A stretch of DNA of 44,921 nucleotides, taken from contig JAGAQJ010000033.1 in NCBI GenBank assembly GCA_017622845.1, positions 1-44,921 of the forward strand, given 5' to 3'. Shown here in pieces: positions 5,713 through 33,729 of this stretch. This stretch comes from Lachnospiraceae bacterium (lineage in GTDB: Bacteria; Bacillota; Clostridia; Lachnospirales; Lachnospiraceae). The notes beneath the pieces were generated by a model. That model ran no database searches. It saw only the letters and a list, made by a program, of their open reading frames with translations, and was not told where the DNA came from. A program made the position numbers and the translations under genes. Every line of letters starts with the position of its first letter. Positions within the stretch are counted from its first letter, which is position 1.

Positions 5713-6075
5713 CTATTCACACGGACAGGCAAGCTCAAACATTGCCTCACAGGCATGATGCAAAAGCTGCGCCTGCTTTGTGTCTGCAAGCTTGTAATAA
5801 ACCTCTTTTCCCTCACGTCTGCTTATAATCAATCCACTCTTTTTGAGAAGCTTCAGATGATGCGACACAGCCGGGTCGCTCATATCCATCGCCGCCGAGA
5901 TATTGCTCACGCACTCCTCACAGTGGCAAAGAAGCCACAAAATTCTCAGTCTGCTTCCGTCACTGACCTGTTTAAACATGTCTGCCGCCTGTGCACATGC
6001 CTCAGCATCCGGCATCTTTTCCAACACCCGTTCTACATTCTGCCCATGATCATGCGGGAGTCTTGTATTTTCCAT
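5713..6075 (-). CDS. ArsR/SmtB-family metalloregulator, Cys-rich
   Basis: The 120-residue winged-helix protein has recognition helix DPAVSHHLKLLKKSGLI and wing SRREGKEVYYKL, typical of ArsR/SmtB repressors that leave DNA on metal binding. Candidate ligands are unusual: CHCEECV in the helix 3 region (about residues 49-55), LHHACEAMFE in the last helix, and a terminal CPCE. The canonical helix 5 zinc site D-x-H-x10-H-x2-E is absent (ADTKQAQL instead), so a thiol-preferring metal is more likely than zinc. An N-terminal HDHGQ may also contribute. AGGAGAGGAATATCAG gives a good ribosome site. A family 3 palindromic repeat begins 37 bases upstream and must overlap or displace the promoter. Confidence 0.85.
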   Translation of the reverse strand: MENTRLPHDHGQNVERVLEKMPDAEACAQAADMFKQVSDGSRLRILWLLCHCEECVSNISAAMDMSDPAVSHHLKLLKKSGLIISRREGKEVYYKLADTKQAQLLHHACEAMFELACPCE

Positions 6076-6111
6076 CTGATATTCCTCTCCTTTTCCTATT
6101 CGTATTATGAT

Positions 6112-6300
6112 ATCAGGGTCAGAAGGTCATATTTGGCATGCTTGCATGTCAATATATGACTTTGAGACCCACAAAACACCGAAAAGCAGCCATTTTTCGC
6201 AGAAAAATGAGCGAATTTGAGGTGTTTTAGGATTGCAGGAGCACTAAGTGCGCAGCAATCCGCAGATATCATGGGGGCAAAATACCTTTTGACCCCAACA
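6112..6300 (+). repeat. Family 3 inverted-repeat element (about 190 bp)
   Basis: Left end AGGGTCAGAAGGTCATATTTG and right end CAAAATACCTTTTGACCCC are imperfect inverted copies over about 25-30 bases. Inside are further palindromes: CATTTTTC-GCA-GAAAAATG and GATTGC...GCACT-AAGTGC...GCAATC. No open frame of note. The terminal repeats differ from families 1 and 2. Bordering TA dinucleotides are compatible with a TA target, but the base composition there makes this weak. Confidence 0.6.
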
Positions 6301-6372
6301 TCATATTATTATATACTATAAAAAAATCTGAGGAAAAAGTCAAAGCAAATCCTTTTGTTATTTTATTTTCAA

Positions 6373-6962
6373 GTAACAGTTCAGCCTTCGGCTTCCTGTT
6401 ACAGGACTCTATTTTAGCCAGGACGAAGGGCAGCAGTCCTATGCTGGGACAGGCAATTGGACTCCAAATGCGAATTTTCTAATGGGTGATGATAAAAGCT
6501 TTCAAAACCGTCCGTGACCGGACTCTACGCGCCGTCCATGGACGCGTTTCGTCCTAAATCCGCGTCCATGCGGATTTTCACTGTTGTATCAAATCACCCA
6601 TTAGAAAATGTCAGCATTCTCCGCCAGCCTGTCCCAACATAGGACTGCAGCCCTTCTGTGTACTGACAACTGTTTCATTTTCGGTTTCAATGAACAGAAA
6701 ACGGCAGATAGTATCCTGTAGGCTGCCTCGGTGGAGAATGGTGATATTTCCTTATACGATGATAGATACTCAGGAGTAAATTTGCACGGAAGCAAATTTA
6801 GGCGAGATGGAGGCATGGATGCCGACTCGAGCCGGCTCCTGCCTCATTAGAAAGCCTTGATTCATCGTATTAGGAAATTCCCATTCGGAACCAATGGCAG
6901 CCAGAGGGATACTATCTGCCGTTTTCGTCCGGACAGGAATGCATAAAAGGCTGAACGGTTAC
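6373..6962 (+). mobile_element. 590-bp MITE-like element, family 1, with perfect 8-bp target duplication
   Basis: Ends GTAACAGTTCAGCC (6373) and GGCTGAACGGTTAC (to 6962) are inverted repeats; ATTTTCAA is duplicated exactly at 6365-6372 and 6963-6970. The interior is non-coding and built of nested palindromes: AGGGCAGCAGTCCTATG pairs with CATAGGACTGCAGCCCT, TTTTCTAATGGGTGAT with ATCACCCATTAGAAAA, and GGCAGATAGTATCC with GGATACTATCTGCC. A GTAA terminus with 8-bp duplication is the known IS66-family signature, so mobilisation in trans by an IS66-like transposase is the likely history. The right end supplies the stop codon of the P-type ATPase gene. The element lies between the family 3 repeat and that gene and accounts for the rest of the 880-bp non-coding gap. 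Confidence 0.85.
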
Positions 6963-8821
6963 ATTTTCAATGCTCTTGTGGCATTGATTACCGCAATAAT
7001 CATAACTCCTACATCGGCAAAGATTGCCCACCACATATTGACAAAGCCGACCGCTCCAAGTCCAAGACAGGCAAGCTTGACAGCAAGTGCAAAGACAATG
7101 TTCTGATGCACAATGCGAAGCGTTTTTCTTGATATCTTCATCGCTGTTGCAATCTTGACAGGGTCGTCATCCATCAGCACAACATCTGCTGCCTCAATCG
7201 CTGCATCAGAGCCAAGCGCACCCATCGCAATGCCGATATCTGCTCTGGAAAGTACAGGCGCATCGTTAATACCGTCTCCTACAAAGGCAAGCTTCTCCTT
7301 TTCTGACTTTACTGCCAAGAGCTTCTCAACCTCAGAAACCTTATCTGCCGGAAGCAGCTCACTCTTAACCACATCTACGCCAAGCTCTGCCGCTACTGCC
7401 TCTGCCACCGGCTTTGCATCCCCTGTCAGCATAATGACCTGTTTCACGCCTGCTGCCTTTAAGTCTGCAATCGCTTCCTTCGCATTTGGTTTGACAATAT
7501 CCGATATCAGAATATAGCCTGCATATCCGCCGTCAACCGCTACATGCACTTCTGTTCCTGCCTTCTGCGGTATCGTGTAAGGAATATCCAGCTTTTTCAT
7601 CAGCTTTACATTTCCCACTGCTACCTTCCTTCCATCAACCACAGCCGATACGCCATGTCCGCTGATTTCCTCGATATCTGTCACTCTCGCCGTATCAATC
7701 TGCTTTCCATACGCTTCCTTTAGGCTCTTGCTGATCGGATGATTGGAATAGCTCTCCGCATATGCAGCCAGCTCAAGTAATTCTTCATTGGAAATTCCAT
7801 TTGCAGGCTCAATACATGTCACCTCAAAGACACCTTTTGTCAGCGTACCTGTCTTATCACATACCACATACTTTGTCTCGGAAAGCGCCTCAAGATAATT
7901 AGAGCCTTTCACCAGCACACCCTTTGCGGAAGCACCGCCGATGCCTCCAAAAAAGCTTAATGGAATAGATATCACAAGCGCACAGGGACAACTGATAACA
8001 AGTGTCGTCAATGCCCGTATAATCCACTGCGGCCAATTGGCAGGATTTCCGATGATAAGATTTGCCACAGGCGGCAAAATGGCAAGCGCAAGCGCACCGA
8101 TACATACTGCTGGTGTATAATACTTTGCAAATCGGGTAATAAAATTCTCAGATCTGGACTTCTTCATGCTGGAATTTTCTACTAAATCCAATATTTTGGA
8201 AACTGTCGACTCACCAAATTCCTTCGTTGTTTCTATGCGGAGCAGTCCTGACAGATTAACACAGCCGCTAATGACCTCGTCACCCTCTCTGACTTCTCTC
8301 GGAAGACTCTCTCCTGTCAGTGCGCTTGTGTTGAGTGTGGAGCTTCCGCTCACAATTTTTCCATCAATAGGAACCTTCTCCCCAGGCTGTACAACAATAA
8401 TTGTTCCAATCTCTACATCATCCGGGTCAACCTGCTCCAGCTCCCCGTCCTGCTCAATATTGGCATAATCCGGTCTGATATCCATCAGTGACGATATGTT
8501 TCTGCGGCTTTTCCCCACCGCATAACTCTGGAACAGCTCGCCAACCTGATAAAAAAGCATAACGGCTGTGCCTTCTACATATTCTCCAAGGATAATTGCA
8601 CCCACTGTTGCTATCGCCATCAGGAAATTTTCGTCAAACACCTGCCCGTTGACAATGCCAAGACCTGCCTTTTTCAATATATCATACCCAATAACCAGGT
8701 ATGGAATCAAAAACAAACCTAACCGCACATATTGATTTTCGACCGGTATCAGGCTGAATATACAAACCAATATGGCAGATATGATAATTCGAATCAATAC
8801 TTTCTTTTGCTTTTTTGTCAT
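6959..8821 (-). CDS. cadA: Zn/Cd/Pb-type P1B heavy-metal exporting ATPase
   Basis: This 620-residue membrane ATPase has P1B hallmarks: TGE actuator loop (about residue 169), the intramembrane metal site CPC at 278-280, phosphorylation motif DKTGT with Asp322, the HP motif in SNHPISK, and GDGINDAP. CPC plus these neighbours fits the zinc/cadmium/lead group (CadA/ZntA). It lacks an N-terminal metal-binding domain; that function is encoded by the separate gene at 8998-9219. The start at 8821 is chosen because GGAGGGATAGAG precedes it and the transmembrane region begins directly after; a longer frame to 8923 has no matching site. The gene belongs to the ArsR-HMA-ATPase operon. Its last codon and stop are formed by an inserted mobile element. 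Confidence 0.9.
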   Translation of the reverse strand: MTKKQKKVLIRIIISAILVCIFSLIPVENQYVRLGLFLIPYLVIGYDILKKAGLGIVNGQVFDENFLMAIATVGAIILGEYVEGTAVMLFYQVGELFQSYAVGKSRRNISSLMDIRPDYANIEQDGELEQVDPDDVEIGTIIVVQPGEKVPIDGKIVSGSSTLNTSALTGESLPREVREGDEVISGCVNLSGLLRIETTKEFGESTVSKILDLVENSSMKKSRSENFITRFAKYYTPAVCIGALALAILPPVANLIIGNPANWPQWIIRALTTLVISCPCALVISIPLSFFGGIGGASAKGVLVKGSNYLEALSETKYVVCDKTGTLTKGVFEVTCIEPANGISNEELLELAAYAESYSNHPISKSLKEAYGKQIDTARVTDIEEISGHGVSAVVDGRKVAVGNVKLMKKLDIPYTIPQKAGTEVHVAVDGGYAGYILISDIVKPNAKEAIADLKAAGVKQVIMLTGDAKPVAEAVAAELGVDVVKSELLPADKVSEVEKLLAVKSEKEKLAFVGDGINDAPVLSRADIGIAMGALGSDAAIEAADVVLMDDDPVKIATAMKISRKTLRIVHQNIVFALAVKLACLGLGAVGFVNMWWAIFADVGVMIIAVINATRALKM

Positions 8822-9775: not shown

Positions 9776-10158
9776 GTAACAGTTCAGCTTTACGGATGAT
9801 TTTGCCAGGACGAAGGTCGGCAGTCCTATGCCGTGACAGGCAATTGGACTCCGAATGCGAATTTTCTAATGTATGATGCCAAAGTCTTTGAAAATATGTC
9901 CGCGACCGGACTCTACGCGCCGTCCATGGACGCGTTTCGTCCTAAATCCGCGTCCGTGCGGATTTACGCTGATGCATTGAATCACCCATAAGAAAATGTC
10001 AGCATTCTCCGCCAGCCTGTTCCGGCATAGGACTGCCGACCTTCTGTGTACTGACAACTGTTCCATTTTATGGTTTCACTGAACAGAAAACGGAAGCCGG
10101 AGGGATACTATCTGCCGTTTTCGTCCGGATAGGAATACATAAAAGGCTAAACTGTTAC
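9776..10158 (+). mobile_element. 383-bp MITE-like element, family 1
   Basis: Begins GTAACAGTTCAGC and ends TAAACTGTTAC. It shares most of its interior with the 590-bp copy at 6373 (for example GACTCTACGCGCCGTCC, GGACGCGTTTCGTCC, and the long palindrome GGTCGGCAGTCCTATGCC / GGCATAGGACTGCCGACC) but lacks the inner 190-bp module. Flanking 8-mers AAAAATAA and AAAACAAT do not match well, so any target duplication has decayed. It fills the gap between the ArsR promoter and the terminator at 10167. Confidence 0.8.
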
Positions 10159-31587: not shown

Positions 31588-31720
31588 GTAACTATTCAGC
31601 AGACATATGCATTTACTGCGTTTGCCGTAAGAAAATGTATATTTGCCAGGAACAATTTCATCACCGAAGGTGATTATGCATGAATTTGTTCTTGTAACTA
31701 TGAAGGTACTGAATTGTTAC
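31588..31720 (+). mobile_element. 133-bp MITE-like element, family 2, in the ldh leader
   Basis: Begins GTAACTATTCAG and ends TACTGAATTGTTAC, flanked by GAATATTG (31580-31587) and GAATATTA (31721-31728), a 7 of 8 target duplication. Read in reverse its first 27 bases match the copy at 9252 almost exactly. The central hairpin keeps the same shape as that copy but with different stem sequence (GAACAAATTCAT... with apical CACC-TTC-GGTG). Confidence 0.8.
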
Positions 31721-33530: not shown

Positions 33531-33729
33531 GTAACCGTTCAGCCGTATGGACTATTTTATCAGGACGAAGGTCGGCAGTCCTATGCTGTGACAGGCAATT
33601 GGACTGCCGACCTTCTGTGCATTGACAACTGTTCCGTTTTATGATTTCACTGAACAGAAAACGGCAGCCGGAGGGATATTATCTGACGTTTTCGTCCGGA
33701 TAGAAATGCAAGAAAGACTGAACTGTTAC
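33531..33729 (+). mobile_element. About 200-bp MITE-like element, family 1 (short form)
   Basis: Begins GTAACCGTTCAGCC and ends GACTGAACTGTTAC. The interior has the hairpin GAAGGTCGGCAGTCC / GGACTGCCGACCTTC with a 22-base loop, and CTGTTC / GAACAG beyond it. A second GTAAC at 33521 makes a start there possible; then the flanks GGAAATTT and TAAAATTT agree at 6 of 8 positions. It occupies most of the 33442-33839 gap; the VanZ promoter follows at 33751. Confidence 0.75.

What the first reader, a model, noticed from the sequence alone, without database searches (positions are those of the whole stretch)
6365..6970. 590-bp MITE with perfect 8-bp duplication sits in the stop codon of a metal ATPase; its removal restores the gene's ancestral end
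Ends GTAACAGTTCAGCC and GGCTGAACGGTTAC are inverted, and ATTTTCAA is duplicated exactly on both sides. The ATPase now ends in the codons for A-L-K-M then TAA, where M is half element. Joining the flanks after deleting the element and one ATTTTCAA gives GCA TTG AAA ATA AAA TAA, that is A-L-K-I-K then stop, in frame. Thus the insertion is recent enough to reconstruct and changed the C-terminus. GTAA ends with 8-bp duplication match known IS66-family transposition.
Basis: partly seen in the sequence, partly recalled or inferred. Interest (0 to 1): 0.72.

Follow-up and report, generated by a model that had tools for sequence, protein, structure and literature searches.

The report
IS66-type MITE carrying paired RNA hairpins
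A 590-base mobile DNA insert that cannot move on its own sits at the end of a metal-pump gene, has the ends used by a known transposase family (IS66), and carries two copies of a structured RNA of unknown function.

Summary
In detail: a 590-bp element (6373-6962) with 14-bp inverted ends (one mismatch) and a perfect 8-bp duplication ATTTTCAA lies in the last codons of a P-type ATPase; joining the flanks gives ...RALKIK-stop in frame. The family is real: 19 of 37 paired-end elements in the held stretches of this genome show 7-8/8 target duplications, against 0 of 555 shifted controls. The IS66 assignment is supported: the exact 14-bp end GTAACAGTTCAGCC lies just past IS66-type transposase genes or remnants in related genomes, although none was found in this genome. 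The genome holds 102 RF01731 matches; all 17 close pairs are divergent. TwoAYGGAY was already proposed in print as CsrA-binding (PMC4333381). Its residence on IS66-type MITEs, often just downstream of stop codons (19 of 30), makes a multicopy mobile CsrA sponge a testable but unproven idea. None of 80 relatives shows the empty junction.

The parts
6365..6372 (.). target duplication, left copy ATTTTCAA
6373..6386 (+). left terminal inverted repeat GTAACAGTTCAGCC
6373..6409 (+). left 37 nt identical to the left end of the 136-bp MITE class (chimeric left end)
   Evidence: L120; query 8-45 matches C45:492-529 at 97%
6425..6656 (.). palindrome A (30-nt arms, 93% complementary, at its base)
   Evidence: I1, fold
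6459..6626 (-). TwoAYGGAY RNA (RF01731), copy A, 95.0 bits (gathering score 43)
6657..6696 (.). spacer between the two palindromes
   Evidence: inferred arms
6697..6926 (.). palindrome B (31-nt arms, 87% complementary, at its base)
   Evidence: I2, fold
6729..6893 (+). TwoAYGGAY RNA (RF01731), copy B, 89.2 bits; divergent to copy A
6949..6962 (-). right terminal inverted repeat (GGCTGAACGGTTAC on + strand)
6963..6970 (.). target duplication, right copy ATTTTCAA
6959..8821 (-). P-type ATPase (E1-E2_ATPase); last codon and stop now partly supplied by the element; start codon chosen by eye (ATG at 8821)
5713..6075 (-). ArsR-type regulator, next gene downstream of the ATPase; in 29 of 80 relatives a homologue follows the ATPase within 340 bp
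9776..10158 (.). second element of the same family (383 bp, one TwoAYGGAY at 9846-10014 minus; flanking duplication only 5/8)

Best explanation
The feature is a non-autonomous (MITE-type) insertion moved in trans by an IS66-type transposase whose ends are GTAACAGTTCAGCC and which makes 8-bp staggered cuts. It went into the last codons of the ATPase gene, duplicating TTGAAAAT on the gene's strand, so that a TAA in the element's own end now closes the frame one codon earlier (ALKM instead of ALKIK). Between the ends it carries two long palindromes, each with a TwoAYGGAY structured RNA, in divergent orientation, so a transcript crossing the element from either side would contain one copy in the sense that shows the AYGGAY-type loops. 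Shown: ends, duplication, in-frame join, family statistics, the two RNA matches and their orientation, and the same end beside IS66-type genes in relatives. Inferred: that an IS66-type transposase moved this copy, that the TwoAYGGAY RNA is transcribed, and that it does anything.
For: Family-wide 8-bp duplications and 289 near-exact ends against 0 reversed controls. Exact 14-bp end 44 bp past the stop of a 357-aa open frame (cut at its 5' end by a contig edge) that matches PF03050 DDE_Tnp_IS66 at 69.7 bits (L327); the same in its second copy L353, and the exact 14-mer beside transposase C-termini in L328 and L329: 4 of 4 loci with at least 75% identity. Same genus: exact 14-mer next to a transposase C-terminal remnant in G015 (L307/L324), and a 441-bp remnant in G033 bounded by GTAACAGTTCAGCC and GTAACAGTTCAGTC with a 118-residue transposase frame inside. 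Related IS66-like elements L298, L310 and L296 are 2251-2323 bp long, with ends GTTACTTTTCAC or GTTACTGTTCAC (15, 15 and 12 of 15 bases matched between their two ends) and 8/8 duplications. TwoAYGGAY; divergent in 17 of 17 close pairs in this genome and 6 of 6 among the listed rows of four relatives.
Against: No IS66 transposase found in this genome by three searches, so movement now is not possible unless the gene lies in the missing part (95.3% complete) or at a contig break. 13 of 37 elements show fewer than 6/8 matches in the flanks: decayed, recombined or mis-paired. No complete autonomous copy with both 14-bp ends was seen; the IS66-type open frames with the exact end stop at contig edges. 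PF03050 and end-copy number do not go together simply: G016 has 97 ends and no PF03050 match. No exact empty site at the ATPase in 80 relatives. The G033 remnant shows no 8-bp duplication.
Confidence: 0.85

Rival explanations
1. On function: the RNA cargo is active. TwoAYGGAY is a CsrA-binding RNA and the MITE family is a multicopy, dispersed CsrA sponge (or a set of CsrA sites in 3' untranslated regions). Each RNA offers two C-ANGGAN-G hexaloops to one CsrA dimer, and the divergent pair makes the element work in either insertion orientation.
For: Across 35 cores from 12 genomes the second loop is invariant at C, A, G, G, A and G with only the N and X positions varying, and the two loops average 0.77 cross-genome identity against 0.53 elsewhere; this is the high-affinity hexaloop on a C-G-closed stem described for RsmE (PMC4005645, passages). 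PMC4333381 (passages) already proposed TwoAYGGAY as CsrA-binding. Cores persist in species whose outer arms differ. 12 of 12 RF01731-positive genomes have a CsrA gene. 19 of 30 classified elements lie within 60 bp of, or (the focal one) inside the last 60 bp before, a called stop codon, against 1 of 30 within 60 bp of a called start.
Against: CsrA is also present in 39 of 48 RF01731-negative genomes (Fisher p = 0.18), and copy number within the genus does not differ significantly (mean 3.0 in 12 against 1.5 in 24, p = 0.12). This genome has only one CsrA match, of the weaker type (57 bits). Loop 1 is altered or shortened in cores of G011, G019 and G026. Position near stop codons may only be where insertions survive. 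No expression data.
Confidence: 0.28
2. On function: the hairpins matter as DNA. Long palindromes help transposition or replication-associated copying, and the conservation reflects folding of single-stranded DNA.
For: Very stable single-strand DNA fold; palindromes are kept in both halves and in relatives with other outer arms.
Against: Short relatives with the same ends and clear duplications (79 bp L075 and 136 bp L130, both 8/8) have no TwoAYGGAY match, so the TwoAYGGAY palindromes are not needed for movement, although the 136-bp class has hairpins of its own.
Confidence: 0.12
3. On function: the insert is a neutral passenger, an ordinary decaying MITE whose RNA match is ancestry without current function.
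For: Many copies have decayed duplications; no transposase in the genome; the change to the ATPase end is minimal and relatives vary there.
Against: Loop positions stay nearly invariant across genomes with different outer arms; divergent order in 23 of 23 close pairs counted, though copies within a genome are not independent.
Confidence: 0.5

Closest known systems
IS66-family insertion sequences and their MITEs
   Same: 8-bp duplication; ends starting GTAAC; exact 14-bp end found beside IS66-type transposase genes (PF03050) in relatives
   Different: no transposase, 590 bp, chimeric left end; the classical IS66 copy found here (L143) has ends GTAAGCGTCAAATAATAG, not GTAACAGTTCAG
TwoAYGGAY RNA, Rfam RF01731
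   Same: both interior modules score about twice the gathering cut-off, full length
   Different: listed by Rfam as 'Cis-reg'; here it is a dispersed repeat inside transposable elements, 102 matches in this genome, close pairs divergent
CsrB/RsmY/RsmZ CsrA-sequestering RNAs
   Same: paired C-ANGGAN-G hexaloop hairpins (PMC4005645 and PMC4333381, passages)
   Different: those are sRNA genes, as far as I recall not repeats; this is mobile and multicopy, and binding is untested
Clostridiales-1 RNA, RF01699
   Same: another Rfam RNA in the same ATPase-ArsR gap
   Different: separate family; outside the element's ends

Membership tests
MITE | terminal inverted repeats, target duplication, no transposase gene, many copies | tested here: met
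   (longest frame wholly inside the element is 71 aa)
IS66-derived element | 8-bp target duplication | tested here: met
   focal copy 8/8; family statistics; IS66-like elements in relatives 8/8
IS66-derived element | ends shared with an IS66-family transposon | tested here: met
   exact 14-mer beside IS66-type genes or remnants: L327, L353, L328, L329, L307/L324, L299; one end only, except L299
IS66-derived element | autonomous partner in the same genome | tested here: not met
   0 matches in G000 (95.3% complete); not strictly required, since a partner can be lost
TwoAYGGAY RNA (RF01731) | covariance-model score above the gathering cut-off over the full length | tested here: met
   95.0 and 89.2 bits against 43
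TwoAYGGAY RNA (RF01731) | two AYGGAY terminal loops | tested here: inconclusive
   second loop invariant at key positions in 35 cores, but loop 1 is altered in several relatives, and focal copy B has ACGGAA in loop 1
CsrA-binding RNA | ANGGAN hexaloops on C-G-closed stems, in pairs | tested here: inconclusive
   rule: AYGGA-hexaloop on at least 4 bp; 49 of 58 cores have at least one, 17 of 58 at least two; 16 and 0 of 2000 mononucleotide shuffles
CsrA-binding RNA | binds CsrA and alters its activity | not testable with these tools
   needs binding and expression experiments

The most novel reading that the evidence does not exclude
A transposon-spread CsrA sponge: an IS66-driven MITE family has dispersed roughly a hundred predicted CsrA-dimer sites over one bacterial genome, partly as divergent pairs that display a binding RNA whichever side is transcribed, often just behind stop codons. 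This would be global post-transcriptional control tuned by transposition.
Probability: 0.25. Interest if true: 0.82.

Novelty: new variant of a known kind. Interest (0 to 1): 0.52.

Why it matters
It shows an orphan Rfam family (TwoAYGGAY, listed as cis-regulatory) as cargo of transposable elements in this genome, explains its many copies there, and ties one MITE superfamily to an IS66-type transposase through exact end identity. If the published CsrA proposal is right, these elements would be a mobile regulatory sponge, and genomes with different copy numbers give a natural dose series to test it.

Tried and rejected
Autonomous partner in the window's genome: sought with PF03050, with a related IS66-like protein and with the transposase C-terminal remnant; none. 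Two places with ends 2.7 and 3.4 kb apart (L119, L272) hold frames that do not look like a transposase by eye (not run against Pfam). Exact empty site at the ATPase: absent in all 80 relatives. CsrA co-occurrence as a test of function: uninformative. Target duplications around TwoAYGGAY copies in other species: of 28 loci only L091 gave a clean case (9 bp, ends GATTAGGGTGTCAAAAG); the other four reported were imperfect or lay inside the palindrome, and 23 gave nothing. Some RF01731-negative genomes may be misses, since at most 38 candidates per genome were scored. Plasmid search: 65 records; of the 20 listed, 19 were annotated as P-type ATPase or HAD hydrolase and one had no annotated feature. 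An early idea that a transposase remnant in L320 is fused in frame to a proC-like gene was wrong: the proC-like frame has its own stop at 315 and the remnant follows it. Literature: IS66 + MITE + Lachnospiraceae gave 0 papers; CsrA + 'AYGGAY' gave 0, an artefact of word-start matching, because PMC4333381 does link the two. Of the 5 papers listed for TwoAYGGAY (7 held) I saw passages of four and only the listing of PMC7657543; none of the passages links TwoAYGGAY to transposition. A search for MITE + CsrA + transposable element gave 4 papers; I saw passages of one (PMC4383904), which warns that MITEs can confound RNA annotation but does not name this family.

Full report
Observation. The element spans 6373-6962 (590 bp), flanked by ATTTTCAA on both sides, with 16-nt inverted arms at 94% complementarity. 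The ATPase on the minus strand (Pfam E1-E2_ATPase) now ends ...ATRALKM-stop; joining the flanks gives ...ATRALKIK-stop in frame. Among 80 ATPase relatives the ends vary: RALKYK (L175), RALK (L177), TLKS in the eight closest; none ends ALKIK and none holds the joined DNA; the closest has 87.5% identity. ALKIK is therefore a plausible former end, not a demonstrated one.

The element is one of a large family. The 606-bp query has 146 matches in this genome, the best near-full-length relatives at 91% identity. The 14-bp end occurs 289 times within one mismatch, against none for the reversed pattern, and 419 times within two mismatches against 28. I paired ends automatically (2 mismatches each, under 620 bp apart) in the stretches held: 37 elements from this genome, 23 of them longer than 330 bp. 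These stretches were mostly fetched because of the family, so they are not a random sample. Flanking 8-mers match 8/8 in 12, 7/8 in 7, 6/8 in 5 and fewer in 13; shifted controls reach 7-8/8 in 0 of 555. In other genomes the numbers are 15, 4, 3 and 4 of 26, controls 2 of 390. At one mismatch the end is found in 62 of 98 genomes sampled, own included, though single matches can be chance.

Subfamilies. Short elements of 57-170 bp share the same ends; ten such loci scanned with Rfam gave no TwoAYGGAY. In this genome there is a 136-bp class and a TwoAYGGAY class of about 300-600 bp, with 79-98 bp pieces that look like internal deletions of the latter. The first 37 nt of the focal copy equal the left end of the 136-bp class (L120) and the rest follows the TwoAYGGAY class, so the focal copy is a chimera between subfamilies.

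The mover. No IS66 transposase was found in the genome (PF03050; a related protein; a C-terminal remnant). In relatives the link is direct. A 357-aa open frame, cut at a contig edge, matches DDE_Tnp_IS66 at 69.7 bits, and the 14-mer GTAACAGTTCAGCC ends 44 bp past its stop (L327). A second copy (L353) and fragments in two other genomes (L328, L329) show the same end: 4 of 4 loci with at least 75% identity, a search of 397 genomes of the family in which 26 had a match. In the same genus, G015 has the exact 14-mer beside a C-terminal remnant (L307), and G033 has a 441-bp remnant bounded by both ends (one with a mismatch) with a transposase frame inside, although without a flanking duplication. 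IS66-like elements of the neighbouring branch (L298, L310, L296) are 2251-2323 bp long with 8/8 duplications and ends GTTACTTTTCAC or GTTACTGTTCAC, alike in kind but not identical. A classical IS66 element (L143) served as control for the method: ends identical over 18 of 18 bases and an 8/8 duplication. Against a simple story, G016 has 97 ends but no PF03050 match.

The cargo. Rfam finds TwoAYGGAY (RF01731) twice in the element, 6459-6626 minus and 6729-6893 plus, and once more at 9846-10014. The genome has 102 matches, 101 above cut-off, and the 14 control genomes none. All 17 pairs closer than 450 bp are divergent (minus then plus); so are all 6 close pairs found in G008, G011, G017 and G020 among 32 rows taken from the partial listing. 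12 of 60 genomes searched, own included, have the RNA. Of 28 loci from 11 relatives, 27 lack the 14-mer within two mismatches (the exception is L110 of G030), and those of G009, G019, G026, G011, G017, G020, G027, G029 and G024 have other outer arms; one G009 copy shows a 9-bp duplication with ends GATTAGGGTGTCAAAAG. The conserved core is thus shared by elements with different outer parts. In G030 a short transposase C-terminal remnant lies next to a TwoAYGGAY core cut by the contig edge (L320).

Loops. In an alignment of 35 cores from 12 genomes (8 of the 30 G000 cores held, 27 of the 28 relatives' cores), loop positions average 0.77 cross-genome identity against 0.53 elsewhere, and the second loop is invariant at C-A-(N)-G-G-A-(N)-G; loop 1 is altered in several cores of G011, G019 and G026. 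The full form is the high-affinity CsrA/RsmE hexaloop on a C-G-closed stem (PMC4005645, passages). The idea that TwoAYGGAY binds CsrA is already in print (PMC4333381, passages). CsrA presence does not discriminate: 12 of 12 positive and 39 of 48 negative genomes have it, and this genome has only one, weaker match.

Place in the genome. By crude frame calling (120 aa or more), 19 of 30 classifiable elements lie within 60 bp of a stop codon or, for the focal one, inside the last 60 bp; one lies within 60 bp of a start. This may be survival bias, but it puts the RNAs where read-through transcripts would contain them. At the focal site the ATPase is followed by an ArsR-type gene; 29 of 80 relatives have such a gene within 340 bp downstream, whereas here the gap holds the element and a Clostridiales-1 RNA.

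Verdict. The finding is real and its mobilisation reading is largely right. By itself the stop-codon insertion is ordinary. The added value is that an orphan RNA family is cargo of IS66-type MITEs here, with about a hundred copies and divergent pairs, which makes the published CsrA proposal testable in a new way. Function remains unproven.

Noticed in passing
window 6108-6271 (+), and L130 359-514 (+): Clostridiales-1 RNA (RF01699, 106.6 bits) sits in the same ATPase-ArsR gap, 93 bp from the duplication; a second one (94.7 bits) lies within 20 bp of a 136-bp MITE in L130.
   Followed up: partly
window 31588-31720: Another short element-like pair of ends (GTAACTATTCAGCAG... and GTAACAATTCAGTACC...) with a 7/8 flanking duplication GAATATTG/GAATATTA.
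   Followed up: no
window 33531-33729: A 199-bp pair of matching ends without a flanking duplication (2/8).
   Followed up: no
L320 (G030:C145) about 213-317: A roughly 32-residue IS66-type transposase C-terminal remnant directly follows the stop of a gene that looks by eye like proC and lies beside a TwoAYGGAY core.
   Followed up: partly
L199 465-632: A 168-bp element with exact 14-bp ends, other cargo and a perfect 8-bp duplication (GTTGATAT) in another Lachnospiraceae MAG.
   Followed up: no
L091 (G009) 1433-1737: A TwoAYGGAY core inside an element with different ends (GATTAGGGTGTCAAAAG) and a 9-bp duplication ATTCTAAAG.
   Followed up: partly
G017, G020, G029: Five, eight and seven CsrA-family matches per genome, all three in RF01731-positive species.
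   Followed up: partly
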